64,000 bases of DNA from NCBI RefSeq assembly GCF_963259705.1, contig NC_081851.1, positions 13,614,145 through 13,678,144 on the forward strand, read 5' to 3'. Positions 2,193-64,000 of the stretch are shown here, piece by piece (position 1 is the first letter of the stretch; the number at the start of each line of letters is the position of its first letter). Position numbers and translations under genes: made by a program. This stretch comes from Myotis daubentonii. Lineage: Eukaryota; Chordata; Mammalia; Chiroptera; Vespertilionidae. The notes under the pieces were generated by a model. It was not told the origin of the DNA and searched no databases. It saw only the letters and a program-made list of their open reading frames with translations.

Positions 2193-2598
2193 ACTTTAAT
2201 CTTTAGGGCTCATTCTAAACTTAGCAGAAGAAATGGGAAAAGGGCAATAAAATGAGGTCCAATGTACTTTGTGAAACAAGGCAGAATGGCCAAACCTCAA
2301 ATCCCCTGCAACAAATGAGGTAAATTATCAAGCATTGGAAAGCTAATCCCATAGCTAGTTACTGGAATTTATTGAGCCATATGTAAGTAATGAGCAGCAA
2401 CTATCTTGTGATCTGTAATGATTGGGAACAATCAAGTTTTTATAAGGAAGCTCAGTTTTTGTTTGGTTTCAATGTCTCACATTGGCCTTGGAACAGTTCC
2501 CTGTTGCATTAGAAGAACTAATACATCTTTTGTGTTTCAATAAAAGCTATTGGCTGTTATTTATTTTTCTTTTAGGATAAGTTAGTCATAAATGACTA
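2193..2598. other. No gene seen
   Basis: AT-rich unique-looking sequence without recognisable exons or repeats. Confidence 0.6.
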
Positions 2599-3012
2599 TG
2601 GTGGGCGCCCTGGGGCTGTGGTCTCTTCTCCACATCCCGCAGGGAGGGGGAGACTTGAACCGGTTCGAGCAAGTTAGGAGGCTCTTTCGGGTTTAAAGAA
2701 TAATGAAAGACAGACATAAAATAGATTAAAAGCTTGGGCTGGGTGTGGTTTCTGACCTCTGATTCCAGGGACAGACAGACAGAGTCTGCCCTCTGGAGGG
2801 AAAGGCACAGAGAGAGCCAGCTCTGAAAGCTGTTTATTATATACTCCAATTACAGGAAGTTACATCACATCTGGGTGGGCCTGAGACATCATGAGATCCA
2901 TCCCCTTAACACTGGGCAGGAGAGTCAGACTGAGTGACATCCAATCTTTTGACTGGTCCCGCCCTCAGGGCATGGCTCTGACCTTGCCCTGAGTCCCAGC
3001 TGATGTCTATTA
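2599..3012 (-). mobile_element. Probable solo LTR, reverse orientation
   Basis: Read on the minus strand the segment has LTR order: unique U3-like sequence, a TATA-like GTATATAATAAACAGC (about 2833-2848), a CT-rich repeat region (CTCTCTCTGTGCC), then a U5-like end finishing in GCGCCCACCA. No internal retroviral sequence and no clear target duplication were found. Class is uncertain, possibly ERV2-like. Confidence 0.5.
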
Positions 3013-3331
3013 AGCCAAGTGTATTCTAAGGGCCCTTAAAAAATAAGTGATTCTCTGATAAGTCATCAGAACCCAATGATTAACATCAATTTTTTATTTT
3101 TATTTTTTGGTGGTATGTGCAGATTTGGTCTGCATTTACACCATTCACATTTCTCTTGTCAACAAATAAAAATAAATACTTCCATAGATATGTTGCCTTC
3201 CTTTTTTATGAAAAGTTATATTTATGGTACAGAAAACATTTAATAGATGTGGAATAAACAGTGTACAATAAACAGCGATCATATCTTGCCCCCTTTCTTT
3301 ATATTTTCATTTTTTAAGAAATAAGGAAACA

Positions 3332-4827: not shown

Positions 4828-6897
4828 CATTGCAATTAGGCAAGAAGAAGAAATGAAAGGCATCCAAATTGGAATAGAGGAAGTAAAACTGTCCTTATTT
4901 GCAGACGACATGATATTATACATACAAAACCCTAGAGACTCCATCAAAAAGCTACTAGACTTAATACATGAATTTGGCAATGTAGCAGGATACAAAATTT
5001 ACCCCAATAAATCTGAGGCATTTCTATACACCAGTAGTGAACTTTCAGAAAGAGAGATTATTAAAACAATGCCGTTTACCATCGCACCAAAAAAAATTAA
5101 GCTACCTAGGAATAAACTTAAAGAGGTAAAAGACCTCTACTCAGAAAACTACAGGACGTTGAAAAATGATATAGAGGAAGACATAAACAGATGGAAGAAC
5201 ATACCGTGTTCATGGATTGGTAGAATCAACATCATTAAAATGTCCATGCTACCCAAAGCAATCTGTAAATTCAACGCACTTCCCATTAAAATACCAACGG
5301 CATACTTCATAGATCTAGAACGAACTCTCCAAAAATTCATCTGGAATAAAAAAAGACCCTGAATAGATGCAGCAATCCTGAAAAAGAACAAAGTAGATGG
5401 GATCTCAATACCAGATATCAAGATGTATTACAAAGCCACTGTTCGCAAAACTGCCTGGTACTGGCACAGAATAGGCATATAGATCAATGGAATAGAATAG
5501 AGAGCCCAGAAATTGGCCCGAACCAATATGCTCAATTAATATTTGACAAAGGAGGCAAAAACATACAATGCAGCCAAGATAGTCTCTTCAATAAATGGTG
5601 TTGGGAAAATTGGACAGATATATGCAAGAAAATGAAACTAGACCACCAACTTACACCATACACAAAAATAAACTCAAAATGGATAAAGGACTTAAATGTG
5701 CGACAGGAAACCATAAAAATTCTAGAAGAATCCAAAGGCAACAAAATCTCAGACATATGCCGAAGCAATGCCTTCACTGATACTGCTCCTAGGGCACTTG
5801 AAACTAAAGAGAAAATGAACAAATGGGACTACATCAAAATAAAAAGCCTCTACACAGCAAAAGAAACCATCAACAAAACAACAAGAAAACCCACTGTGTG
5901 GGAAAACATATTTGCCAATGTTATATCTGATAAGGGCCTAATCTCCAAAATTTATAGGGAACTCATACAACTTAACAAAAGGAAGGTAAACAATCCAATC
6001 AAAAAATGGGCAAATGACCTAAATAGACACCTTTCAAAAGAGGACATTCAGAAAGCCAAGAGACATATGAAAACATGCTCAAAGTCACTAATCATCGGAG
6101 AGATGCAAATCAAAACAACAATGAGGTACCATCTCACACCTGTCAGACTGGCTATCATCAACAAATCAACAAATGACAAGTGCTGGAGAGGATGTGGAGA
6201 AAAAGGAACACTCGTGCACTGCTGCTGGGAATGCAGACTGGTGCAGCCACTAAGGAAGACACTATGGAGTTTCCTCAAAAAACTGAAAATGGAACTCCCA
6301 TTTGACCCTGTGATCCCACTTGTAGGAATATATCCCAAGAAACCAGAAACACCAATCAGAAAGGATATATGCACAACTATCTTCATAGCAGCACAATTCA
6401 CCATAGCTAAGATTTGGAAACAGCCTAAGTGCCCATCAGCAGATGAGTGGATTAGAAAACTGTGGTACATCTACACGATGGAATACTATGCTGCTGTAAC
6501 AAGGAAGGAACTCTTACCATTTGCAATGGCATGGATGGAACTGGAGAGCATTATGCTAAGTGAAATAAGCCAGTCAATGAAGGAAAAATACCACATGATC
6601 TCACTCATTCATGGATAATAGATACCATTATAAACTCTTGAACAATAATAGATACAGAGGCAGAGCTGCCTCAAACAGATTGGCAAACTGCAGCGCGAAG
6701 GCCGGGGAGGGTTGGGGGGCAGGAGGTAGGGGGGTAAGAGATCAACCAAAGGACTTGTATGCATGCATATAAGCATAACCAATGGACATAAGACACTGGG
6801 GGATAGGGGAGGCTAGGGGACTGTCTAGGGCGGGGGAAAAAAATGGACACATATGTAATACCCTGTGTAATACTTTAAGCAATAAAAAAAAGAATAA
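4828..6897 (+). mobile_element. 5'-truncated L1 (ORF2 C-terminal half and 3' UTR)
   Basis: Starts inside the reverse-transcriptase domain of ORF2 and keeps the catalytic FADD motif (near 4900). After an in-frame stop near 5362 and a shift, a 328-codon frame (5632-6618) covers the ORF2 C terminus, with the cysteine/histidine knuckle C-x3-C-x7-H-x4-C (encoded near 6180-6235). The 3' UTR ends in a poly(A)-like tail near 6890. It begins about 23 bp after the Helitron CTAG. It is a dead copy. Confidence 0.92.
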
Positions 6898-18700: not shown

Positions 18701-21700
18701 TGCCACTCGGATATTTTCCCTGAGGCCCAGCGCAGCGTGCACTTGGGACACTAGACAGCACTGCAGCACTCCATCTGGGGGCCGTTTCAAACAGCGAAAT
18801 CGCCACCAAAAAGCAAGAGAAGAGGACTCCATGGCACTCCATGGACCACAGAAGGGACGCTCGTGTGCAGTGTGAGAGCTGAAACAGGCAGGAGTCAGAG
18901 GCCTTGTTCAACCGCAGCTGCAAATGTGCACATCAGGCGATTCCAGGATCTTGCCCGATGGACAGGCCCCTGACAGGCCATGGGGACCAATGAGGGGTGA
19001 CAAGTGCATCTCAGCGAGGAGGTGAGTTCGCCAACAGGGAACGCGGGAATGACGTGGAGCAAGCATATGTCCTTCTGGAATGGCTGGTGAGAGAGGATGA
19101 AGATGCCCGTGCCCAACACAGTCATCACCATCATCCATGTGGGAGGGGCGGTCCCCCACACCTGGACGATGCTCCATCCCAGCCACCAGCTGGAGGCCCT
19201 TCCCTCCTGACCATCAGCTGTGACCGTGACAGTGCGGGTGAAAGGGCACCATGACCAGGGGACTCACCTGAGCTGAGCTCAGCGGGAGCTGAGGGAGTTG
19301 GTGTGAATGAAAGGGGGCAGATGCTGCTGCAGGGGCGGGGCGGTTACCTTTCATTCTCTTGCCGCAGCCTCTCATTCTCTCTGGCGGCGGCGGCAAGGGC
19401 CTTGGCCTCCAGCTCCTGCTTCAGGGCCTCCTGGACTTCGGGCAGCTGCTTCTCCTGCTCCCCCGGCTCCGCCAGCTCCCTCTCCTCGGCCCCCTGTTGG
19501 TTCTGGGGGCCCAGACTGGAAGGTTCCTCCTGCCCAGAGGGAAAAGGTGAGGATGCCTCACTGGGTGCAGGCCCCGGGGAGCAACAGACCCCGTATCCCT
19601 GCACCACCCCCACACGCAGTGAGGGGCCAAGAGCAGGGCAAGTGCAGACCCCAAAAGAGCAGGGACCCTCGGGGCAGGCAGCACTAGCTGTGCTGAGTGC
19701 GGTTCTCCCAGCACTGAAGGAACTGCGCTGGCCGGTCCCACATGGTGCTACAAGAGCCCTGTGCCCTCTCCACAGTCGGGACCCTTAGGGGCACAGGATG
19801 CCCGCTCTCTGGACCAGCTCCTTGGCTGCTCTCTGTGACCACATGTAAAAGCCTATTTTTTTTAAAGTACATAGAGATCAACCAAAGGACTTCTATGCAA
19901 GCTTATAGGCCTAACCAATGGACACGGACAACACGAGGCTGAGAGCATGAGTTCCCTCCCCCCACCAATAGTGGGTAATGTGGGGATATGGACACATATG
20001 TAATAACTTAATCAACTGTGGTGGCTGGTAAGCGAGGAGGCATGGAGGAGTGTGCTTGCCTCTGTGGCTTGGGCTCTTTGCGGGGATGTGGGTGTCCTCA
20101 GGAGCGCCAGGGCCCAGCTGAGACAGCAAAGGCCGAGGGCAAGCGGTGTCCTCAGAAGCACGAGCGCCACGCTGAGAAGGCAGCGGCCAAGGGCAAGCTG
20201 GCCCCGGCAGAAAAGCACCTTGAGGAGGATGCCGCAGCGGGGTGCTGGATGGGGAGTGGAAGAATCGCGAGCCCCAGGCCGCCTCCGCACTGCTAGCTGC
20301 AGGACCTGCAGGTGGAGATGCTGGTGGTTATCTTCGCCTCGCTCCCCGTCACCGACCTGGCCAGCCTGGCCCAGGTCTGCACCTAATTCTGCCACATCCT
20401 GCACATGGACAACATCTGGAGAAGGCGCTTCCGGGAGGAGCTTGGCGTTTGTGAAACTTTGCAGAATCTGGGGGCGGTAGGTACCTCTTACCGAGAAGTC
20501 TATGCGAAGCTGTTCCAGCCATACAGGCACATTTTGGGTTTGTGGGGGCGAGATATTGAGCTCTATAAAACAGTGCTGTATGTAGCGGTGGACGGCTTAG
20601 GCATTACTGGTTGGACGTACAGGCCTTGTCTTAACACCCATGTGGACGGCCCAATGCAATTCAAGCCCGCATTCTGAATCCGCCTGACGGAGTGGAAATC
20701 AGCCAAGGTGGAGTGCATGGAAGGCCGCCACCGCAGGCCCCACCGCCGCCACCTGCAGATTCGGAAGGATAGGCTCACCAGCCAGTGCAAGAAGAGAGAC
20801 CACCCAAGGGATTCACCGATGCGGCTTAGGGAGGAATTCCGGATGGCGCTGATATGGAATGTCACAGTGCAGCATCACTGCTGGACCTACCTCTGCCTCT
20901 ACCTCCCGCCCAGCCATCCGGACGACCTCATCAGGCCAGGCCTCTTCTAAGGCAAATGCGATCGCTTGGGCCTCATGATTTTCATGCTCAGCTTCCACGG
21001 GAAGTGTGCCAGGCTCACACACATCACGGGAATCACATTCCACATATTAGAGATCCACCTCACGCGCCGCATCCAGCTGCGAGATGGCGAGATCTTCCGC
21101 GACTTCCACGAGCTCTCCAGCGTGGTCTGGGAGATGGAGGAGCAGGTGCTCCGGGAGCAGCAGCAGCAGCAGCAAGAAGACGGGACCGAGGAAAGCGAGG
21201 GCCATGGCTGGCAGAGTCCTGCCCAGCCCAGCGTCGGGGAGTCCGGGGCTGCAGCTGCAGAGGAGCAGCCTGTCCCGTTTGTTCTGCCTGTGGGCGTGAG
21301 CCCAAGGGACCAGAACTACCCCCGGACTTGCAGGATGTGTTTCTATGGCGTGGAAACTGTTCCCGTATGTCCCTCAAACTGGCGCTACCCTGGAGTCGTC
21401 ATCCTGTTCGATGAGAACCACTTGGGGTTCATCGATCTGGAGGAGAAATCCTTCATCCTGTTTGGCAGAGTCCAGAACACCTTCCAGAATGTGGAGGCAG
21501 CACCCACGCAGGCCTTCCTGGAGATTCTCAAGAACATTCACCCCCGACCACGTTTACCACCCGAGAGGATATTTGATGTTTAGAGAGGGTGGGGGAGAGA
21601 GGGAAAGAAAGAAAGAATCGATGTGAGAGAAACACATCAGTTGGTTGCCTCCTGCCCAAGCCCGGAACAGGGCCAGGCTAGGTAGGGGCCAGCAATTGAG

Positions 21701-31611: not shown

Positions 31612-34600
31612 AGTTACCAATGATATCAAAGAAGAAATTAAAAACATCCTGGAAACTAATGACAATGAAAACACAACAATCCAAAACCTATGGGACACAA
31701 TGAAAGCAGTCCTGAGAGGGAAGTTTATAGCTCTACAGGCCTATCTCAAAAAAAAAGAAAAAATGGTAGTAAATCATCTAACTCTACAACTCAAAGAATT
31801 AGAAAGAGAGCAACAAGAAAACCCCAGAGTGAGCAAAAGGAAGGAGATGATAAAGATTAGAGCAGAAATAAGGACACAGAGACCAAAAAAAAACAAAAAA
31901 AAACAATACAGAACATCAATGAAACCAAGAGCTGGTTCTTTGAAAGGATAAACAAGATTGACGAACTGCTAGCAAGACTCACCAAGAAGCAAAGAGAGAG
32001 GACCCAAATAAACAAAATCAGAAACGATAGAGGCGAAATAACAACAGACCCCACAGAAATACAAATGATTGTTAAAAAATACTATGGGCAGCTCTACTCC
32101 AACAAACTAGACAACCTGGAGGAAATGGACAAATACCTAGAAAAATACAACATTCCACAACTCAATCAGGAAGAATCTAAAAATCTCAATAGGCCTATAC
32201 TATGGAAGAAATTGCAGCAGTCATCAAAAAGCTTCCATCAAACAAAAGCCCAGGACCAGACGGCTTCACAGGGGAGTTTTACCAAACATTCAAGGAAGAA
32301 CTAAAACCTATCCTCCTCAGACTACTACAAAAAATTCAAGAGGAAGGAACACTTCCAAGCTCATTCTATGAAGCCAGCATCACCCTAATACCAAAACCAG
32401 GTAAAGACAACACAATGAAAGAGAATTACAGGCCAATATCCCTCATGAACATAGATGCCAAAATCCTCAACCCAATCTTAGCACATCGGATCCAGCAGTA
32501 CATCAGAAGGATCATACACCATGACCAAGTAGGATTTATCCCAGGGATGCAAGGATGGTACAATATCTGCAAATCAATAAACGTGATACATCACATAAAC
32601 AAATTGAAAGAAAAAAACCCATATGGCATATCAGTTGATGCAGAAAAAGCATTTGACAAAATCCAACACGCATTTTTGATAAAAACTCTCAGCAAGATGG
32701 GAGTAGAAGGATCATACCTCAACATAATAAAAGCCATATATGACAGGCCCACAGCCAACATCATACTCAATGGACAAAAACTAACACCATTTCCCCTATG
32801 GACAGGAACAAGACAGGGATGCCCACTCTCAGCACTCCTGTTCAACATAGTACTGGAAGTATTAGCCATTGCAATTAGACAAGAAGTAGAAATAAAAGGC
32901 ATCGAAACTGGAAAAGAGGAAGTAAAACTGTCCTTATTTGAAGACGACATGATATTATACATACAAAACACTAGAGACTCCATCAAAAAACTACTAGACT
33001 TAATACACGAATTTGGCAATGTAGCAGGATACAAAATTAACCCAAGATATCTGAGGCATTTCTATACACCAACAGTGAACTTTCAGAAAGAGAAACTAAA
33101 AAAACAATCCCATTTACCATCGCACCAAAATAATTAAGCTACCTAGGAATAAACTTAACTGAAGAGGTAAAAGACCTCTACTCAGAAAACTACAGGACGT
33201 TGAAAAAAGAGATAGAGGAAGACATAAACAGATGGAAGAACATACCGTGTTCATGGATTGGTAGAATCAACATCATTAAAATGTCCATACTACCCAAAGC
33301 AATCTATAAATTCAACGCACTTCCCATTAAAATAACAACAACATACTTCACAGACCTAGAACAAACTCTCCAAAAATTCATCTGGAATAAAAAAAAGACC
33401 CCGAATAGCAGCAACAATCCTGAGAAAGAACAAAGTAGGTGGGATCTCAATACCAGATATCAAGATGTATTAAAAAAGCCAATGTTCTAAAAACTGCCTG
33501 GTACTGGCACAAGAACAGACATACAGAGCAATGGAATAGAACAGAGAGCCCAGAAATTGGCCCGAACCAATATGCTCAATTAATATTTGACAAAGGAGGC
33601 AAAAACATACAATGGAGTCAAGATAGTCTCTTCAATAAATGGTGTTGGGAAAATTGGATAGATATATGCAAGAAAATGAAACTAGACCACTAACTTACAC
33701 CATACACAAAAATAAACACAAAATGGATAAAGGACTTAAATGTACTACAGGAAACCATGAAAATTCTAGAAGAATCCAAAGGGAACAAAATCTCAGACAT
33801 ATGCCGAAGCAATTTCTTCACTGATACAGCTCCTCCTAGGACACTTGAAACTAAAGAGAAATGAACAAATGGGACTACATCAAAATAAAAAGCTTCTGCA
33901 CAGCAAAAGAAACCATCAACAAAACAATGAGAAAACACACTGCGTGGGCAAACATATTTGCCAATGTCATATCTGATAAGGGCCTAATCTCCAAAATTTA
34001 TAGAGAACTCATACAACTTAACAAAAGAAGATAAACAATCCAATCAAAAAATGGGCAAATGATCTAAATAGACTCCTTTCAAAAGAGGACATTCAGAAAG
34101 CCAAGAGACATGAAAACATGCTCAAAGTCACTAATCATCCGAGAGATGCAATTCAAAACAACAATGAGGTAACATCTCACACCTGTCAGACTGGCTATCA
34201 TCAACAATTCAACAAACGACAAGTGCTGGAGAGGATGTGGAGAAAAAGGAGCACTTGTGCACTGCTAGTGGGAATGCAGACTGGTGCAGCCACTATGGAA
34301 GACACTATGGAGTTTCCTCAAAAAACTAAAAATGGAACTTCCATTTGACCCTGTGATCCCACTTCTTGGAATATATCCCAAGAAACCAGAAACACCAATC
34401 AGAAAGGATATATGTACCCCTCCGTTCATAGCATCACAATTCACCATAGCTAAGATCTGGAAACAGCCTAAGTGCCCATCAGTAGATGATTGGATTAGAA
34501 AACAGTGGTACATCTACACGATGGAATACTATGCTGCTGTAAAAAAGAAGGAACTCTTACCATTTGCAACGGCATGGATGGAACTGGAGAGCATTATGCT

Positions 34601-54405: not shown

Positions 54406-54710
54406 TGATCATGTCTCTTCTGAAAACTGACAGTGGTCTCCTATGGCCTTTAGAAATGAGTCCCAAATCCTTAGCGTGTCCGTCCAGGCCCTCCATGGAC
54501 CGACCTTAGCTTCTTTTGCAGTCTTGTCTCTCCCTCACTCCTTTCCTGTGGTCACACTTTGAGATCCTCATTGGCATCACACTCTGCCAGCCCAGCTTAG
54601 AGCTGTGCCATGCCCTGAATCCCGACGTCTCCCTCTGGAGTCCGTGGAAGGCTGGAGTTCTTTCTGGCATCTCCCATCTTTCCCCTGTCCTGCTCTCTGC
54701 TCCCATCGTT
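54406..54710 (+). repeat. L2-type LINE remnant
   Basis: GTGGTCTCCTATGGCCTTTA, CCAGGCCCTCCATGG and CACTCTGCCAGCCC resemble the 3' end of an ancient L2. Degraded. Confidence 0.5.
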
Positions 54711-54789
54711 TTTTCTTTGTGTTTTCGTGTTTGTTGTTGTTGTTTTTTTTGCAATAACATGAAATGCTACACCCTTGTCCACCCTCAGG

Positions 54790-55047
54790 AGTTTTAAGGA
54801 TCTCATTCAGTGTGGAAGCTGAGAATTATAAGCAGCAGAATAGTGATGAAGCTAACAGTAGGGACTCGTCTTTCTCACAAAAGAACAAGTCCACAGCTGG
54901 GTGGATCCAATATTGCATTCAGCTGCTCAGTGATGTCAGGATAAGCTCCCAGCATCAAAGAGGGGAAAAAAATCCTCTCCTCGCTATTGTGCTTTATATC
55001 AGGGAGGAACTTAGTGTCTCAGAAATCAACTATGAGACTCTTGTGTG
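54790..55047 (+). pseudogene. Possible weak ANAPC1 exon remnant
   Basis: An open frame contains W..C and ALYI-like features (AIVLYIREELSVSEINYETL) spaced as in the ANAPC1 segment after the previous exon. Identity is low, so the call is tentative. Confidence 0.4.
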
Positions 55048-55344
55048 AACCCTTGGGCAGAACGGGCCGAATTGCAAGAGACAAGGGGCAGTTTAGTGTC
55101 AAACTGCTCCTGAAGGAGGTGCCTCAGCCCAGGAGGAGGTGGTGAGGGGAAGGGCAGTGGGCACATGTGGGATGGTGAGCTTCCTGTTTCTACTGTGATC
55201 ACTAAGGGCTCCGTACATTTCTTCTGTGTGGACTTGTTGAGGAAAGGTATCCCGAAATTCAGGGATGACTGTTTCACAACGGTTGCCTAGTGTTTTGAAG
55301 TACCCTGTCTCATACTGTCCATATTATCCACATAGAACTGGTTA

Positions 55345-55585
55345 AACATATATGTTTATATTCATCTGAGAGAGAGGAAGGGAAAGGGCACAGAGAGAGC
55401 AGGGGGTGGGGGTAGGGGAGGTGAGGAGGCTGGGGAAGTGGAGAGAGAAACATCAATGATGAGAGAGCATCATCGGTCCCATAGCCCCTAGCGCGCAACC
55501 CTGGTACGGGCCCTGACTGGGAATGAAACGGGGATCTCTTGGTTCTGGGGTCCACGCTCAAGCACTGAGCCACGCCAGCCCGGCA
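55345..55585 (-). mobile_element. Ves-type SINE
   Basis: Reverse-oriented with an expanded G-rich stretch, AAACATCAATGATGAGAGAG, GTACGGGCCCTGACTGGGAA and GAGCCACGCCAGCCCGGC. Confidence 0.85.
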
Positions 55586-55957
55586 GCCTCATATCAATTT
55601 AAAATGAAATTTTTTTTTTAATTCTAATTTAGTAAAACTTAAAATTCACTGAGACATTTAGGTTTCTCTTGTTGGGTACCTGAGGAGTGTTGGCTTGGTG
55701 TATTGACCAGCTAGCTGGTTTGCCTTGAAAGCAAATATGAAATGAAAGAAAGGAAATGTGTCTCCCCTCAGAGCAAGAGTGCTGCTCACATGAGAACGAT
55801 GAGCTTTGGATGATTGGGCCACAGCACTGAACGGATCCCTCTTGCACAGCGTGCCTCCTTTTGAAATACTCACCAGTGGCATTCCTTTGTCCTTTCTGCT
55901 TAGAATTTTCTGACATGGTGGTTTTCGTTTCAATTATAGATTGTTCCAGTGGTGGTG

Positions 55958-56061
55958 TCAGTGAACTATGGCCCCTCCGGTAGAACCAGGGCTGCGTACC
56001 TTGTTTCCCTACCGTCTTGTTCCAGTGGAACCATTGCCTCTCCCTAAGCTGAGTTTGACTG
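55958..56061 (+). pseudogene. ANAPC1: ANAPC1 later exon copy
   Basis: TMAPPVEPGLRTLFPYRLVP followed by VEPLPLPKLSLTG matches ANAPC1 closely. Donor GTGAGT at 56062. Confidence 0.85.
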
Positions 56062-56344
56062 GTGAGTTAAATTCTGGGCTCATGGAGGAAGGGAAATGAT
56101 TCAGGAAGTGTTTAGTGGAGGGAGTTGTTTTGAGTTACTCCTGTTGCAACCAAAGCAATGCTTTTGCTATCCCTAGTGATTTTAAGTATGGTTGAGAGCT
56201 AGTCTACTGGTTGTTTCTGGCCAAATAGCAAATCCAGCTAAACGGCGAGGGAAGTAGAATGCCCCCCATTAAGTAATTTTTCCTTTCATGAGACCATTTC
56301 AAGAGACAAATTGGCACTTGGGAAAGTTTAGAAAGATATGATTG

Positions 56345-56560
56345 AGTCTGGCCAGTGTTTCACGGTGGTCGAGCGTCCGCCTGTGAAGCAGGCAGGAGTG
56401 CACAGTTGGTTTGATTCCGGGTCAGGGCACAGGCCCGGGATGCAGACTGGATCACCAATAGGGGTCATGAAGGAGGAAACCGATCAATGCTTCTCTCTCA
56501 TGGATTACGTTTCTGTCTCGCCCTTTCTCCCTCCCTGAAATCAATCAAAGTGTATTTTTT
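56345..56560 (+). mobile_element. Ves-type SINE
   Basis: GGCCAGTGTTTCACGGTGGT head, TTTGATTCCGGGTCAGGGCA, CGATCAATGCTTCTCTCTCA and an AAATCAATCAAAGTG tail. Confidence 0.9.
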
Positions 56561-56577
56561 AAAATATATACTGAGTC

Positions 56578-56790
56578 TAGCCCCGGCTGATGGGGCTCAT
56601 TGGATGGGCATCTCCCCTTGCACTGAAAGGTTTCCGGATCAGTTCCCAGGGAGGGCATGTGGCAGGGTTTTGCGGTCAATTCCATGGCGGGGGTGGGCAG
56701 GAGGCGGCTGGTGCACCTCTCATCTATGTTCTCTGCCTCTCCCTTCCTCTCTCCACTGTCTATCTATATATTGGAGGTATGATCCTTGTG
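56578..56790 (+). mobile_element. Ves-type SINE, diverged
   Basis: AGCCCCGGCTGATGGGGCTC head, GGATCAGTTCCCAGGGAGGG, GCAGGAGGCGGCTGGTGCAC and a CT-rich end. Confidence 0.8.
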
Positions 56791-57015
56791 TCAACCAGAA
56801 CCTATACATAAAGCAAAATGAGAAGAAACTGTCACTTCTAGTAGTTTCACTTCTGACAGTTCACTAGTGTGAACATTTTGGTGTATATATTTCCAGATTT
56901 TATTTCCCGATTTTATCAGTGTATACGTAGTTATCAGAAGAAATTAAATGTTTCAAAACTTATTTTAAAACTGTACTATACAGTGAGCACCTTCCATGTC
57001 AGCATATATGTGTAC

Positions 57016-57046
57016 TTGTGTGTGTGTGTATGTGTGTGTGTGTGTG
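57016..57046. repeat. (TG)n microsatellite
   Basis: Fifteen or so TG units with one TA interruption. Confidence 0.95.
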
Positions 57047-57223
57047 GAATTATGTATATGTACATGAGAAGACATGGTCTACACGTGTTTTTAATAAACA
57101 TCCTTATTTAATCAAAAGGAGTATTTAACTTAATGGGACATAGTCTACATAAATAGGTAGATACTTTTAGAAATTATCCTTATTTACTATTATAAATGTA
57201 CAGTTGGGATGTATTCCTCTGAA

Positions 57224-57423
57224 TTATTTAAGATAATCGCCTAGAACTCTTCTGACAGCACGAGAGAAGGCTTCCAGCGCAGCCAGTAGCTGGCTCCATA
57301 ATGGCTTCAGGTACTGCCTCGGGCCAGGCCTGGCCAGGGCAGGGCCTCTCGTTGGACCAGGCTCTGGCCCCTGAGCAGACCCTTCCTCTGCCTCAGGAGA
57401 GCTCTGGAGCTCTGGGCGTGGAC
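57224..57423 (-). CDS. RalGDS-like gene terminal exon
   Basis: Acceptor CTCCTGCTCCAG. Pro/Glu/Gly-rich linker (PRPELQSSPEAEEGSAQGPE), then QYLKPLWSQLLAALEAFSRA and a stop at 57224-57226. A possible internal donor (GTACCT near 57312) could instead lead to unseen 3' exons. Confidence 0.6.
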
Positions 57424-60400
57424 CTGGAGCAGGAGAAAGAGACAGATTGACTCACACTCCTGGCTTTCCTGTGACTTAGTGCAGACAGGAAAGATGCCAC
57501 CGCCTTTAAGGGAACTCCAGCCCATGAGCCTGCCCTCCCCCGATGATCTGCCCAGATGATCATTCCGCCTCACCTTGTTGAGTTGCCTCGGTGGGCTCAA
57601 GGTACTGCAGCGCCAACCATAGATTTTGGGCCTGGCCCACCAGGTGTGAGGCGGGGGAGTTGACGGGCACCAAGGCCTGCTCTACCTCGAAGCAGGCGAA
57701 AGGAAGGGGCTGCCCCAAACCCTGGACGTGGTCCAGCCAGGTCCCCACCATCGCAGCAAAGGCCCTGGGGAGAGGCAGGTGGGCAGCAGAGTCTGAGTCC
57801 TGGTGTTTCCTTCCACTCTGCCCTCCCATGGCACACTTGTTTAGATCTGAGCCTCTGTGCAGGCCCCCCTTGCCCACCCAGGGGACAGCCCCATGCCACC
57901 CCCGGCCCCTGTGTGGCTGTCCTGGTTGTAGCAGTTGTGGGATCCAGCAGGTTCAACACGGAGTCTGTGTCAGACTCTTCTTCCCACTGGCAGCTCTCCT
58001 GAAGGTCCAGTGCACTGCCCACCCCCACCCTCCAGGCCCTGGGCATCTGGGCTGAGGACTGAGACAGACTTGTGAGCAGCCTGCTCACCACAGTCCTGTT
58101 CTGAGCCTGGCCACCGTGGTCAGGGGAGATGGATATAGAGGTGGCAGGCAGAGCGGGGTGGGTCTGTGGGGGGTGGGAGGGGACTGTGAGGGACAACTCA
58201 GCACAGCGTCCCCTCTGGGTCTACAAGGCCCGGGACCCCACCCACTGTCATCTTTGACTCCTATCCTCCTGGAATAGAAGACTCCAGAGCCCAGGCCTTT
58301 CTTGGGAATCAGATGATGTATAAGATTAGGGTTCTGCCAGGCACTCTCCACCCTCCACCCACCACAGTCCCCACAATGCTGACTCTGGGGGCCCTCCCTC
58401 TGGACCCGGAGACCACTCACTTTATGACTTGGTCCTGCGGTGTGTCAGCCCGGGCATTGTAAGCAGGTGTGCCTCCAGATGGAAAAATCACTCTGATCGC
58501 ATCAGCCCTGATGGATGGTGGACACGACCTGCGAATGATGGACAGCATGACTGCTGGACTCATTGCCCAGAACTGAGGCCCACGGATTGTGTCTGTTTCA
58601 TTCCTTGAGTCAGGCTAAGTGTCTCCAAAAGTGCGTGCACATTGTCGAGTAAAGAAACTCCAACCAGAAGCATGCCATACATCTGAGTGGGCCTGGGCCC
58701 CTACTCTCCCCAGAAATCCCCAGTGTGGTCCACCAAGGACCAGGACCGGCTAGGTGAAATCTCACACTGCTTAACAGGTTGCTTTGCATGTGCTTTTCCA
58801 ACCTCCGATGCCACAGGCCGCTGATGGGTGTGTCAGAGTTCGTTCCGTGGGACAGAGTGAAAGAATTGCCACCAACAACCGCCGCACATCCAGCTACCCT
58901 GTCTGCAGAGCCAGGGAGCAGGTGAGACCTGCCATGGCTTGTCCCCACAGCAGTGCTATGAGGTTTCCCCCCCAGCAGCCCACTTTTCAGAGGAGCTACC
59001 TTAGACTCGGGAAGATGTGGTGACGTTTCCATGCCTCACAGCTAGCAGTGGGCAGAGTCACGAGTGTGTGCTCACCTAGTTAGAAGCTCGTCCAGGAACC
59101 GTTGGGCTCTGGAGCAGGCCAGCGTGGAGACGTGGGGGACGATTCCCCCCGGGAAAGCTGGTACCATGGCCATGGCCACCTTCTCCGAGGTGCCTTCCTG
59201 GAGGGCCTGCATCCTGCAGGACTCATGCAGGTTACCAGTTCGCTCAGCTGCACACTGGGTGGGAGAAGGAAGGATATCCATGTCAGCGGCATGACCGTGA
59301 ATCCCACAAGGATGGAGGTTTGGAGCTCAGTCGGGAGGTCCCAGCCCCACTGTGAAGAGTGCAAGAGGAGGGAGAGGAGTGCCCCGGCAGGACGAGGTTC
59401 TAGGTCTTCAAAGTGCCACTGAAGTCCCGTACATGTTCATACAATTGCCACCTTCTCAGCATCTCTCCCCCCATCCCCGCCCCACCCCCCCGCCACCTTT
59501 CCTTTAGCTGAGGATCAACCAACCTCCTTGTAGTAATAGTGTATATGAAGAGCCCGGCCCTGTGAGTCCCAATGAAAGGTCCTTGTTATAGAGATGAGAA
59601 CACAGAGGCTTAGGAAATATCAGATGCCTGCTCAAGGGCATGCAGGTCAGAACTGGGTACTGTCCTGCATGACATTCCTTCTCAGGTACCGGGGACTTTC
59701 CTGCTACTGACATGGGTGGAAAGGGTGTGGGAACTTTGTCCCTCCCCAGCGTGGGAAAAGTGTACACGGTATATATGGCCTGTGAAAGCCTTTGACTTCA
59801 AAAGAGCAAGTTATGTTTTATGCTTTTACATTAAAGGGCATTTTAAGACCCTCATTTTGGAGATGGCAGATTCCGCAAGGTGGCAAGTGCCTGGAGACTG
59901 CAGATGGGAGAAAGGCGATCACGGGGCAGGAATCTGACCCGAGGACTCGGGGAGGAGCTGATACATGTGGTGGGTGTAAAGTGACAGGTGCCTCAGTGTC
60001 CCCATGAGGCAATTGCCAGGGACGGAACACTGTGTTTGAGTTGGACACCTTGACGTCGGCCAGGTGAAAATTTCAGTGAGTGAGATTTCCCGGGCCAGGC
60101 TGGGAGCAAGGCAGCAGCCATCATCAGAAACTGCTGGTGACAACGTCCCAGCCACAGCCCTTTGGGTTTGGAATCTGCCTGCAGCCATTCAAATTTTACA
60201 GGTGCTCGTCCTTCCCCCAGCAGTGGGCGTCCATCTCCAGCTGGGGACATTATATGTCCTGTGGTCAGAATTGTGTACCCCTAATCCCATGACTTTTGCA
60301 ACCCCTCGAACTTGATTATGTGTCTGCATTTGAGTTTTAGTCTTCAAGCAAGTCATTCAGGTGACGTGAATTCAGTGGTGTGGGTCTTCATCGAATCTGA

Positions 60401-62384
60401 CCAGTGTCCTTAGAAGAGGAGGGAAGGACACGTGGCAGTGCAGAGGGGAGTCCATGTGACACACAGAGAGAAGACAGCCATCTACAAGCTGAGGAGCGAC
60501 CCCCTCAGGAGATACCAGCCCCGCTGACAGCACCATCTCTCACTTCTAGCCTCCGGAATTGTGAGGAAATGAATGTCTGCTGTTAACACCACCCAGTGTG
60601 GCCCTATGTTATGGCAGCGCAAGCAAGCAACCTAACACAGTCCGTTCCGACACACATCAGTGTTCCGGGCAGCACTGCTGACATGGCAGCTGAACTGCAT
60701 TAGGCCCATGTCCATCAGCACTGAAAGGCCGCATCGCTGGGCAAATGACCTCCCCGACTGGACCAGGTCTGCAAGGACAGTGGAGCTGAGTGCTCCAGAG
60801 GATACGTGGCAAGTGTAGTTTAAGCAACACAAACAGCGAAATGCCCAAGTGCTCATGGTCCACTGTGAAGTCACAGGACATTTCTCTCTCTGATATTGCT
60901 ACAAATATGTGAGGAGCGTCTCTCTACCGTCCCATGTAGCTGGAGGGGGGCGTGGGGGTCCGCATTTCTTTGTCTTGGGGCTGTGGGACACTAGGGAGAG
61001 TCCTGGGAGGGTGCCCTGGGAGTCCCCAGATTTGAGTTAGGGTTCTGGGCACTGCCAGGTTGTGTTGAGGTTGTGGGTGTAGAGACCCTCGAGGCCAGCT
61101 CTCACCTCAGACAGGCACTGGTCTGTGTCTTCAGCCTGGTGCACCTGCACCCTGACCCCGTAGGTGGTGTAGTCGGGTCCATGGGCCAGCACCTCAATGA
61201 TGTCCTCCTTGGAGCTCTGCAAAGACAGAGTGGGTACTGAGCCAGGAGGCATCAGGAACCTTCCACCCAATCTGTGGTCCTGTGTCATGGCAGACCTAGT
61301 CTGTGAGGAAACAGTGAGGATGTTCCTGGCAGCCCTGCTGAGCTAGCAACAATTGATTTGTGTCAAGGTGGAGCCACAGTGAAAGCCTGAACCACTGAGG
61401 AAAACTCTGTCCTTGTTGGGATGATATGGAGTTGGGTCAGGCCACAGCTCCTGAGCTGGCCATGCTGCAATGGTTTGTCGTCCTCTGTGAGGTGATAGGT
61501 TGCAGAGAAAAGTATTCAAGACCTTAATCCCTTCCTATGCCCCTAACCCTACCCCCCCCCTGCTTCCCCCCTCTTTTTTTTCTTTTTTAAATACACAGCA
61601 CTATCAAGTGGGATGATGTGTAAGGCTTGGAGAAGGCCTACAAGGACAGTCGGGCTGGGGCTGGTCCACAGGATACTTGGGGCATGGAGCTCATCAGTTG
61701 AAAGGAGCATGAGGCAAAGAGAGCAACAGATGCCTTCTCTCTGATCCCAAGAAGCACAGGAAGAAAGACTGCTTTCCTCCCCTACCAGGGAGCTGGTCGG
61801 GAGGACTGAAGGTATAGATCACTTTGGGAGTGGGCCTGTGAGAACTTTGAGGCCCCAGATTTGAGTCTGACTTCTGGTCCCACCCCAGTCACCTCAGGGT
61901 CCTGGGTGTGGGCCAGCTCTCACCTCAGTTTGGCACTGGACGGTTCTCCTGTCCTGACGCACTTGTCCTTCGTACCCGTTGAGGGCATACGTGAACCTGT
62001 CAGCCAGCTCCTCGACGCTGCCCTTGTTGGAGCTCTGCAAAGACAGAGCCCGCTACCGTGCCAGGAGGCATCAGGGGCCCCGGGCATTACCAGTGGGGAA
62101 GATGCCCACCACCCATTCTGCTCCCCAGATCAGGCAGAGAGGGGCATCTGCAAAGACCTCCAGGCAGGGAGTGAAGTTGATGACCCCTTGAGCACCCCTG
62201 CGATTTAACAAGTGGGTAGCAGAGCTTCGACCCCAGCACTCAGCTTCCCTTCCTGTGAGCCATGACCTGGGCAGTGAACGTGACACACCCTCCAACACCC
62301 TCCAGACTTCTGACACTTACCAACCTGCTCCTGAGCCCAGGATGAGCATCCCTCATTCCCCGCTTCCTTCCCCTCACCATCCCA

Positions 62385-62429
<45 letters not shown>

Positions 62430-62653
62430 GATGAGGGGTAAGAGGTGTGGGGCTCCCCAGGTGTGACCCCTAATTGACGCCCAAGTGTGAGCTGAAAGGG
62501 CCTGCCCTTGGTTACCTGTGTGTGCCTCGTGCCAGAGGACGAGGGGTATTGGTGGTGGCACTTGCGCCTGTTTCCCCAGCAACAGAAACATCTCTTACCC
62601 TGGGCTTTCTTCTGCCCAGAGCGTCGGAAGAACGGGAAGCAACAGAGAGACAT
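57224..62653 (-). CDS. RalGDS-like gene with REM region, no CDC25 domain
   Basis: Seven minus-strand exons join without a frame break: 62653-62516 (138), 62034-61924 (111), 61216-61106 (111), 59254-59076 (179), 58528-58421 (108), 57764-57574 (191), 57423-57224 (200 with TAA). Total 1038 bp, about 345 residues. The N terminus is Cys-rich. The centre matches RalGDS-family proteins: VRVQVHQAED (RalGDS KVQVHH region), QEGTSEKV..VPAFPGG (AGTLEKLVEHLVPAF region), TPQDQ and VGTWLDH (LGTWLDQ region), parts of the REM/RasGEF_N domain. A Pro/Glu-rich linker then runs to a stop. The CDC25 domain that would activate Ral is not visible upstream of 57224. It may be a functional truncated paralogue, a partial duplication, or have 3' exons I could not find. 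Confidence 0.75.
57574..57764 (-). CDS. RalGDS-like gene exon 6 (REM end)
   Basis: Acceptor CTCTCCCCAG, donor GTGAGG, phase 2 to 1. AFAAMVGTWLDHVQGLGQPL then PFACFEVEQALV matches the RalGDS SILGTWLDQY..DFPCLKQLVAY region. Confidence 0.82.
58421..58528 (-). CDS. RalGDS-like gene exon 5
   Basis: Acceptor CATTCGCAG, donor GTGAGT, phase 2 to 2. SCPPSIRADAIRVIFPSGGT then AYNARADTPQDQVIK; the PQDQ piece matches the RalGDS loop before the second REM helix. Confidence 0.75.
59076..59254 (-). CDS. RalGDS-like gene exon 4 (REM start)
   Basis: Acceptor TTCTCCCACCCAG, donor GTGAGC, phase 0 to 2. Encodes RMQALQEGTSEKVAMAMVPA then FPGGIVPHVSTLACSRAQRF, aligned with the start of the RalGDS REM domain. Confidence 0.8.
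60250..60642 (+). mobile_element. MLT1-type MaLR LTR
   Basis: Begins near GTCCTGTGGTCAGAATTGTG and runs through CCAGTGTCCTTAGAAGAGGA, GAAGACAGCCATCTACAAGC, TCTAGCCTCCGGAATTGTGA to GGCAGCGCAAGCAAGCAACC. Forward MLT1 LTR; intronic in the RalGDS-like gene. Confidence 0.8.
61106..61216 (-). CDS. RalGDS-like gene exon 3
   Basis: Acceptor CTGTCTTTGCAG, 37 codons (SSKEDIIEVLAHGPDYTTYG, then VRVQVHQAEDTDQCLSE), donor GTGAGA. Closest to the RalGDS EELV..VQVHH segment. Phase 0 to 0. Confidence 0.75.
61924..62034 (-). CDS. RalGDS-like gene exon 2
   Basis: Acceptor CTGTCTTTGCAG, 37 codons (SSNKGSVEELADRFTYALNG, then YEGQVRQDRRTVQCQTE), donor GTGAGA. Phase 0 to 0. Same length and flanks as the next exon, so it is a tandem duplicate. 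Confidence 0.7.
62387..62427. repeat. (CA)n microsatellite
   Basis: About 20 uninterrupted CA units between exons 1 and 2 of the RalGDS-like gene. Confidence 0.97.
62516..62653 (-). CDS. RalGDS-like gene exon 1
   Basis: ATG at 62651-62653, 46 codons (MSLCCFPFFRRSGQKKAQGK, then RCFCCWGNRRKC), phase 0 out, donor GTAACC. A Cys-rich start like this occurs in some RalGDS-like proteins and could be lipid-modified. An upstream in-frame ATG (62680) is possible. Confidence 0.6.
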
Positions 62654-62659
62654 CCTGGT

Positions 62660-63480
62660 GTCATGACCTTCTCCTCTCAAGTGAGCTGGAAAGGCAGTTG
62701 TCTCTAGAATGTGGGTACCTGGTTACCACGGTTCCCATTTCTGTTGGGGATCTGTCCCCAGTGAAGTGAGGTCACCCCTTCAAGGTTCCATGACCTGTGC
62801 CCCTTCCTCCAATCAGGGCCACCCAAAGGCCCCTCTGGGCTGCTGACCTCTCACCTTCCTGGCCCATGTTATCTCCATACCTGTCTACAAGCATCCAACA
62901 CAGCCCTCCCCCCACGCTCCCTGGGAAGAAGGAGGCCCCCGGTTTTGGGGGAGAAAGCCGAGTTCACACCTCCTTTTTCTTAGGTGTTCTGTGCCCTGGG
63001 GGAAGCCTCTGTGCCTCTCTGGGCCTCCCCAGGCTCCCAAGCTGCCCAGTGAGGATGATGCTAGGCACCATTTCCCTAGGAAGTCATCAGGTGCAGATGG
63101 GACAAGGCCCCTAACAGCTGTGGGCTGGTGTCCCATGAATCTGGTACACAAACCTAGAGGTGGAAGATGACAAGAACGAGTGGCACACAGCATGCAACAC
63201 TAGACAAAAGAGCCCTGGGCCCAGCCTGTGATCTCAGGGAAGTCACTGCACATGTGCGCCTCATTTTCAAGTCTGTACCTTTAAGGGTTTGCAATGACAG
63301 GAAATTCAGATAGGGTCACCCACTGGCCTAAAACCTCACCGTGGTCTCTTGTTATAAACTTAGCCTCAGACAAGTGCCTCATGTGGGTCCAAGCCTTAGG
63401 GGCCTTCACAGTGGCTTCGAGTGAGTCCAGCCTCCTGGTGGGAACATCCTTGTGTGTCTGCTGAGTGCTCAGGAACTGGC
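62660..63480. other. Upstream flank of the RalGDS-like gene
   Basis: Unique sequence 5' of the candidate start codon. No CpG-rich block or TATA box is evident, so the promoter is not located. Confidence 0.4.
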
Positions 63481-64000
63481 TTCTGAACAACATAGAGGAC
63501 AGCCCAGCTGATGGGGTGTCAGGTCCTGTCACTTGTCTTGTACTCTCCTTCTTGAGGTCCCTTCCTTCCTCTCAGCCTCTCTCTGGCTTTCTGTGTGTGT
63601 GTGCGCGTCTCTGTCTGTGCCACTGACCTGTTACTCTGTCTGGAAGCTGAGTCCACACCCTTTTCCTTACCGCTTTAGCAAATCTTGGTTTTGGTATGTT
63701 CTTCACTTTGTTCTGAGAGTGTCTTGGTCTGAGAAAAGATACGGCATATCGTGCTACTTTATTGTAACTTCTAGACATAAGCTGTCAAGTCCCATGAGTG
63801 GGATAGATTTCCACCTTGGCATTCCTGATACGACGATTCTAGTGTGAAGCCATCAAGGTGAGCAGCAAGAGTACTAAGCCACATTGACTTCAGGGCCTCC
63901 TGATTCCATGTGTTCTCTGTGACCTGTCAACCTCTAGTATCACCAGGTCCCTAAGCATTCTCTACGGGCAGCCCGAAGGATCTTTTGAAAATGTCAATAG
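63481..64000 (+). repeat. Segmental duplication, copy 2
   Basis: Direct repeat of 53905-54405 offset by about 9.58 kb; it continues past the window edge. The ANAPC1-like exon that precedes copy 1 is not seen before copy 2. Confidence 0.9.

What the first reader, a model, noticed from the sequence alone, without database searches (positions are those of the whole stretch)
57224..62653. Intact RalGDS-like gene that stops before the catalytic domain
Seven exons with splice consensus keep one open frame of about 345 codons, with clear similarity to the N terminus and REM region of RalGDS-family proteins, yet it ends before any CDC25 (RasGEF) exon. A pseudogene would be expected to show stops or shifts over seven exons. 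A REM-only protein could act as a regulator or decoy in Ral/Ras signalling.
Basis: partly seen in the sequence, partly recalled or inferred. Interest (0 to 1): 0.8.

Follow-up and report, generated by a model that had tools for sequence, protein, structure and literature searches.

The report
Amplified bat gene from truncated RALGDS
The gene is real and stops before the catalytic domain as reported, but it is one of dozens of similar copies of a bat gene in which the front half of a RALGDS-like gene was joined to an unrelated new tail, and part of its 'REM' core is missing, so a Ral/Ras decoy role is unlikely.

Summary
Confirmed: seven GT-AG exons on the minus strand (62653-57224), one open frame of 345 codons, homologous to RALGDS (BLASTP E 4.7e-29), no CDC25 exon found in the window. 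Similar proteins are automatic gene models in Eptesicus, Myotis, Pipistrellus and Molossus. New here: (1) homology to two catalytic paralogs of the same genome stops at 57319-57321 inside exon 7; the last 31 codons are an unrelated tail, predicted helical, shared by Vespertilionidae and Molossidae, so the truncation looks like an old fusion. (2) The gene sits in a ~9.5-kb tandem unit amplified in this genome: at least 60 exon-7 and 40 exon-1 places, with a 19-unit array on contig C9. (3) dN/dS among the intact copies read is about 1; exons 4-7 vary somewhat less than introns, exons 1-3 do not. (4) Five residues of the REM core are missing and no Pfam family matches at E<=1. The copies are too young for open frames to prove selection; persistence of frame and tail across bat genera is the better argument for coding. 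Best reading: a fast-evolving ampliconic bat gene, not a REM-based Ral regulator. No expression data or cross-species DNA were available.

The parts
57224..62653 (-). Seven-exon gene, 345 codons, RALGDS-like N-terminal half plus new C-terminal tail
62516..62653 (-). Exon 1: MSLCCFPFFRRSG..., Cys-rich basic N terminus (membrane anchoring inferred, untested)
   Evidence: 40 exon-1 places listed in the genome
61924..62034 (-). Exon 2, 111 nt, phase 0; duplicated sister of exon 3
61106..61216 (-). Exon 3, 111 nt, phase 0; aligns to the RALGDS SSTQEIGEEL... segment
59076..59254 (-). Exon 4: start of the REM-derived part; lacks 5 residues where RALGDS has FLCTYRAF
58421..58528 (-). Exon 5 (absent from the Myotis myotis models P0006 and P0020)
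57574..57764 (-). Exon 6: end of the REM-derived part (LEPTEA)
57224..57423 (-). Exon 7: start of the linker plus new tail and TAA stop; 60 places listed in the genome, none of those 60 with an internal stop
57224..57319 (-). New 31-codon tail (RQYLKPLW...GDYLK) and stop, beyond the point where homology to two catalytic paralogs ends (57319 and 57321)
   Evidence: helix predicted for the Eptesicus relative
54407..64000 (.). Part of a tandem-amplified ~9.6-kb unit; next copy at C13:13678145-13687741, 99.8%

Best explanation
It is one copy of a bat-specific, amplified protein-coding gene derived from a RALGDS paralog. A rearrangement cut the ancestral gene inside the linker exon before the CDC25 exons and joined it in frame to unrelated sequence that supplies a 31-residue tail and the stop (the end of homology and the shared tail are shown; a single origin in a common ancestor of vespertilionid and molossid bats is inferred). 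In this genome the gene lies in a ~9.5-kb unit repeated in tandem on several contigs (shown). The product has no CDC25 domain and so cannot be a canonical exchange factor, and its REM remnant has lost core residues, so it probably no longer works as a REM domain (inferred). Most likely mechanism (inferred): a small membrane-associated protein, anchored through the N-terminal Cys/basic cluster and using the C-terminal amphipathic helix for membrane or protein contact, produced in dose from many copies and evolving fast with at most weak constraint on exons 4-7.
For: Open gene with clean splice sites. Similar architecture and the same tail in Eptesicus, Myotis, Pipistrellus and Molossus models; the five vespertilionid tail-bearing proteins in the tree form one clade, 100/99. 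Homology to two catalytic paralogs in the same genome ends at 57319 and 57321. Copies: 60 exon-7 rows and 40 exon-1 rows listed; 23 of the 40 exon-1 rows have a listed exon 7 at gene distance; C9 array of 19 units at 9.51-9.54 kb. Tail helix pLDDT 85-92 in the Eptesicus relative. Nonsynonymous variation in exons 4-7 over nine copies is 0.59 of the intron level, p 0.023; dN/dS against four catalytic paralogs 0.57-0.77 (partial exons for two of them). Simulated neutral survival of the frame at 4-8% change per lineage: at most 6.7% without indels, at most 0.33% with.
Against: dN/dS among copies is about 1, as for free decay. One of five seven-exon copies is broken; four other copies have exons 4-7 only. 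For three copies exon divergence is not below intron divergence to a significant degree (D p 0.42, C13.220 p 0.17 with exons higher, C11.360 p 0.40). Relatives in other species are gene predictions, biased towards open frames. No expression evidence. Membrane anchoring untested. The amphipathic moment of the tail varies from 0.43 to 0.66 between species.
Confidence: 0.55

Rival explanations
1. Non-functional passenger: a relic gene carried in an amplifying ~9.5-kb satellite-like unit, open only because the amplification is recent.
For: N:S between the three distinct intact CDSs is 8.5:0.5, 14:4 and 16.5:4.5 on about 789:249 sites; exons 1-3 vary as much as introns; copies with exons 4-7 only, without a start exon, stay equally open in 4 of 4 read; simulated intactness at 0.5-1% per lineage is 22-72%.
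Against: Tail and frame persist across genera and two families, which neutral drift makes unlikely; exons 4-7 vary less than introns.
Confidence: 0.33
2. REM-only regulator or decoy of Ral/Ras signalling.
For: Homology to the REM-containing half of RALGDS, E 4.7e-29; catalytic paralogs exist in the genome.
Against: No Pfam family at E<=1; five residues missing where RALGDS has FLCTYRAF; no fold match, though the model is weak. From general knowledge, not from a call: REM works by bracing the CDC25 domain, which is absent.
Confidence: 0.07
3. The transcript splices from the linker into CDC25 exons further downstream, so the protein is full length.
For: Close paralogs have that structure.
Against: No CDC25 exon found in about 57 kb downstream in the window or in the flanks read; the PF00617 search lists none on C13 below 22.1 Mb; several models in other bats end at the same tail.
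Confidence: 0.03
4. Copies are an assembly artefact (uncollapsed haplotypes or misjoined repeats).
For: Copies A and B have identical exons and introns apart from four gapped positions.
Against: A and B differ at 7 of 3570 flank positions; other copies differ by up to 4% in introns with distinct ends, lie on several contigs, and reach 19 in regular tandem; in Molossus one 90% cluster holds 13 member records, which may include isoforms.
Confidence: 0.02

Closest known systems
RALGDS (Ral guanine nucleotide dissociation stimulator)
   Same: N-terminal half is homologous from exon 3 into the linker, E 4.7e-29 to donkey RALGDS
   Different: No CDC25 or RA domain; REM core deletion; duplicated exon 2/3; Cys-rich first exon; new tail; multi-copy
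Bat 'ral guanine nucleotide dissociation stimulator-like' gene models (Eptesicus fuscus 343 aa; Molossus molossus and Myotis lucifugus sets)
   Same: Same or similar exons, end and tail; this gene belongs to this group
   Different: Only automatic models; the searches made listed no paper recognised as describing the fusion tail or the amplification
Catalytic RALGDS-like paralogs in the same genome (C13:24.69 Mb, C10:1.17 Mb)
   Same: Share exons 1-6 and the start of the linker exon; the stretch aligned includes intron 6 and part of intron 5
   Different: Continue into CDC25 exons; no tail; keep the segment deleted here
Gene-bearing megasatellites and ampliconic families such as USP17/RS447, TSPY, CT47 (recalled, no call)
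   Same: Kilobase-scale tandem units each holding a gene, high copy number
   Different: Different genes; expression and germline role untested here

Membership tests
RALGDS/RGL Ral exchange factors | Sequence homology to RALGDS | tested here: met
   BLASTP E 4.7e-29, 32% over residues 75-320
RALGDS/RGL Ral exchange factors | CDC25 / RasGEF domain (PF00617) | tested here: not met
   No Pfam family in the product; no exon in window or flanks read
RALGDS/RGL Ral exchange factors | RasGEF_N / REM domain (PF00618) | tested here: not met
   No match at E<=1; among seven relatives four match below the curated cut-off, E 0.008-0.22, three not at all; core deletion
RALGDS/RGL Ral exchange factors | Ras-association domain (PF00788) | tested here: not met
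   No Pfam family in the product; most RALGDS records listed carry it
Bat RALGDS-like truncated-with-tail group | Same end and tail, monophyletic with vespertilionid members | tested here: met
   Tail identity 27/33 Eptesicus, 29/33 M. lucifugus, 20/33 Molossus P0008; clade of five, 100/99
Ampliconic / tandem megasatellite gene family | Similar tandem units of fixed period, many copies | tested here: met
   Unit 9.5-9.6 kb; 19-unit C9 array; 60 exon-7 rows listed
Ampliconic / tandem megasatellite gene family | Germline (testis) expression, typical of such families (recalled) | not testable with these tools
   No expression data available

The most novel reading that the evidence does not exclude
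A bat-specific gene was born by cutting a RALGDS paralog and adding a new helical tail, then amplified into ~9.5-kb tandem arrays on several chromosomes under germline selection (drive, suppression or dosage), with its N terminus diversifying freely while exons 4-7 and the tail are kept.
Probability: 0.15. Interest if true: 0.75.

Novelty: new variant of a known kind. Interest (0 to 1): 0.5.

Why it matters
It shows a signalling gene turned into a multi-copy, non-catalytic gene with a new C terminus in two bat families, a clear case of gene birth by truncation plus new coding sequence. If expressed, its copy number and fast change would make it a candidate for germline conflict or dosage effects in bats, and bat gene models named 'ral GDS-like' should not be read as Ral exchange factors without checking for the CDC25 domain.

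Tried and rejected
REM-only decoy: dropped as leading idea because of the core deletion and the missing Pfam match. Both models are of the Eptesicus protein P0002, not of the window protein. A sequence search of the PDB with the window protein gave three hits, best E 0.44, none a RasGEF. Third repeat exon in intron 3: none found. A first dN/dS run had exon 5 of the window copy out of frame and was redone. Whole-gene alignment of copies lacking exons 1-3 gave false translations and was replaced by exon-wise matching. Exon against intron in the copies with exons 4-7 only (C, C15.945, C16.524, C20.704) looks like strong constraint (p 3.5e-7, 6.4e-9, 8.5e-5, 0.0011), but these four end at the same position 60336 and so may be one lineage, and synonymous changes are few there too (0, 0, 3, 3), so gene conversion or chance is possible and I do not lean on it. 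Cross-species dN/dS could not be done: no orthologue DNA. Copy counts are lower bounds: one search scored 117 of 718 candidates and did not list all 188 matches; one search scored 40 of 91. Literature: six searches, each showing a capped list (10-20 papers), listed no paper that I recognised from title or abstract start as describing a RALGDS-like expansion in bats. Passages were read in PMC3891661, PMC3716681, PMC13003292 and PMC5437515 (the last mentions RGL2 only); the rest were seen only as listings.

Full report
Observation. On the minus strand, seven exons between 62653 and 57224 carry AG/GT borders and join into 1038 nt, 345 codons and a TAA, without an internal stop. Pfam finds no family at E<=1, but the product matches bat proteins, many named 'ral guanine nucleotide dissociation stimulator-like': Eptesicus fuscus 343 aa (75% identity, full coverage), Myotis lucifugus, Molossus and Pipistrellus among them, 30 proteins with E<=1, all of them bats by the names shown. 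A profile search gave 46 proteins, bats again except two without a name. A profile of catalytic relatives then reached RALGDS of many mammals (743 proteins, the best 120 listed). Directly, the window product aligns to donkey RALGDS over residues 75-320, 32% identity, E 4.7e-29. No CDC25 exon was found in the window or the flanking stretches read.

Origin. Catalytic paralogs in the same genome (C13:24.69 Mb, C10:1.17 Mb) have counterparts of exons 1-6; aligned from intron 5 on, homology to this gene runs through exon 6, intron 6 and the start of the linker exon and ends at 57319 and 57321. The last 31 codons and stop lie beyond that point and, among the sequences held, matched only other copies of this gene type; where the new sequence came from is unknown. 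The same tail ends Eptesicus, Myotis, Pipistrellus and Molossus models, so the fusion probably predates the split of Vespertilionidae and Molossidae (about 50 million years, recalled). In a tree of residues 84-279 the five vespertilionid tail-bearing proteins form one clade (100/99), while the Molossus tail-bearing and catalytic proteins group with each other. I read that as gene conversion in the front part after one fusion; two fusions at the same place are less likely. Exons 2 and 3 are duplicates, both 111 nt and phase 0, with similar flanks.

The REM part. Where RALGDS has FLCTYRAF, the window gene lacks five residues (that this is the REM signature is recalled). Vespertilionid relatives P0002-P0007 and P0010 lack them too, as does P0009; Molossus and catalytic bat members whose segment could be read keep it. 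Pfam RasGEF_N matches are below the curated cut-off even in relatives (E 0.008-0.22 in four of seven, none in three). Structure prediction of the Eptesicus relative was weak (mean pLDDT 52.7); the tail helix, residues 310-342, was the one well-predicted part at 85-92, and Foldseek gave no match at E<=0.001. A working REM fold is therefore not shown, and its loss is likely but inferred.

Amplification. The window lies at C13:13614145-13678144 of a 2.13-Gb genome in 121 contigs. Copy B, 9.6 kb away, is identical in CDS; copy C has exons 4-7 only; copy D has a stop in exon 2 and a lost exon-2 donor. A search with the protein listed 60 exon-7 places, 45 of them on C13 between 11.4 and 24.1 Mb, 11 on C9 and one each on C10, C11, C14 and C79, none of the 60 with an internal stop; 117 of 718 candidates were scored and not all 188 matches listed, so this is a lower bound and favours good matches. 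Exon 1 gave 40 places at 94-100% (40 of 91 candidates scored), including 19 on C9 spaced 9.51-9.54 kb. For 23 of the 40 exon-1 rows an exon 7 was listed at gene distance. Of the copies read, five have all seven exons: A, B, C13.220 and C11.360 are intact and D is not; four more (C, C15.945, C16.524, C20.704) have exons 4-7 only in the stretch read, all four open, and all four lose homology at 60336; the C9 edge stretch L039 held only exons 6 and 7.

Selection. Among the three distinct intact CDSs (A and B are identical), N:S is 8.5:0.5, 14:4 and 16.5:4.5 on about 789:249 sites; A against D gives dN 0.025, dS 0.027; A against an orphan exon 6-7 pair gives 0.96 (0.46-2.88). Over nine copies, variable sites in exons 4-7 are 4.2% N, 4.6% S and 7.0% intron (N against intron p 0.023, S against intron p 0.33); in exons 1-3 over five copies 6.7%, 5.2% and 5.5% (N against intron p 0.48). 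These counts include the broken copy D and treat related copies as independent. Copy by copy, exons differ from A significantly less than introns in the four copies with exons 4-7 only, but not in D, C11.360 or C13.220, the last with more change in exons than introns. Against four catalytic paralogs dN/dS is 0.57, 0.77, 0.57 and 0.58, with upper 95% bounds from 0.80 to 1.04; the last two comparisons cover only exons 4-6 and 4-5, and the figures include constraint on the catalytic side. So the recent copies evolve nearly neutrally, with at most weak constraint in exons 4-7. Simulated neutral intactness is 22-72% at 0.5-1% change per lineage but at most 6.7% at 4-8% without indels and at most 0.33% with. 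Open frames of the recent copies are thus weak evidence; persistence of frame and tail across genera is stronger, though biased because annotation favours open models.

Mechanism. Shown: no CDC25 or RA domain, new tail, amplification. Inferred: no exchange activity, no working REM, membrane association through the MSLCCFPFF...CFCC N terminus (resemblance to palmitoylated N termini such as that of GAP-43 is recalled, untested) and through the tail helix. I put 0.55 on a real, fast-evolving ampliconic gene, 0.33 on a neutral passenger and 0.07 on a REM-type decoy.

Known or new. Single bat models of this type exist in public annotation. The searches made listed no paper that I recognised, by title or abstract start, as describing the fusion tail or the amplification; the lists were capped and most papers were seen only as listings. 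I rate it a new variant of a known kind.

Noticed in passing
C9:2109968-2281503 of G000 (19 exon-1 places): Regular tandem array of at least 19 units, period 9.51-9.54 kb, about 2.1 Mb from the contig start; other copies lie 1-2.1 Mb from the starts of C10, C11, C14 and C20, suggesting subterminal spread.
   Followed up: partly
C13:11.36-24.09 Mb of G000: Exon-7 copies recur at ~9.5-kb spacing and several times at ~85 kb (85,680; 85,893; 85,110; 88,627), so a larger unit that includes much of the window may be repeated.
   Followed up: no
L017 (C13:24690001-24700000), 2543-3082: Orphan exon 6-7 pair with tail lies downstream of a catalytic RALGDS-like gene on the same strand; open, about 7% diverged from the window copy.
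   Followed up: partly
61924-62034: Exon 2 is unusually close to exon 2 of the catalytic paralog at C13:24.69 Mb (dS 0.09 against 0.34-0.94 for the other exons), a sign of gene conversion.
   Followed up: partly
62426-62515: Exon 1 can be read on in frame past its donor, as in the longer Myotis lucifugus model P0003; an alternative donor before the GT repeat is possible.
   Followed up: no
20951-21583, + strand: ORF with a Cyclin D1 binding domain (PF12014, E 1.1e-24), FBXO31-like by recall.
   Followed up: no
32193-33137 and 5350-6618, + strand: LINE-type reverse transcriptase remains (PF00078 in the first; the second had no Pfam match at E<=0.1 and is judged by eye).
   Followed up: no
L001 (C1:223408148): RALGDS copy with a 550-residue open frame over several exons' worth of protein, probably a processed retrocopy.
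   Followed up: no
P0038, P0040, P0020, P0021, P0013: A further bat group of RALGDS-like models without a CDC25 domain (92/91), most with a third repeat exon, P0038 with a partly similar tail.
   Followed up: partly
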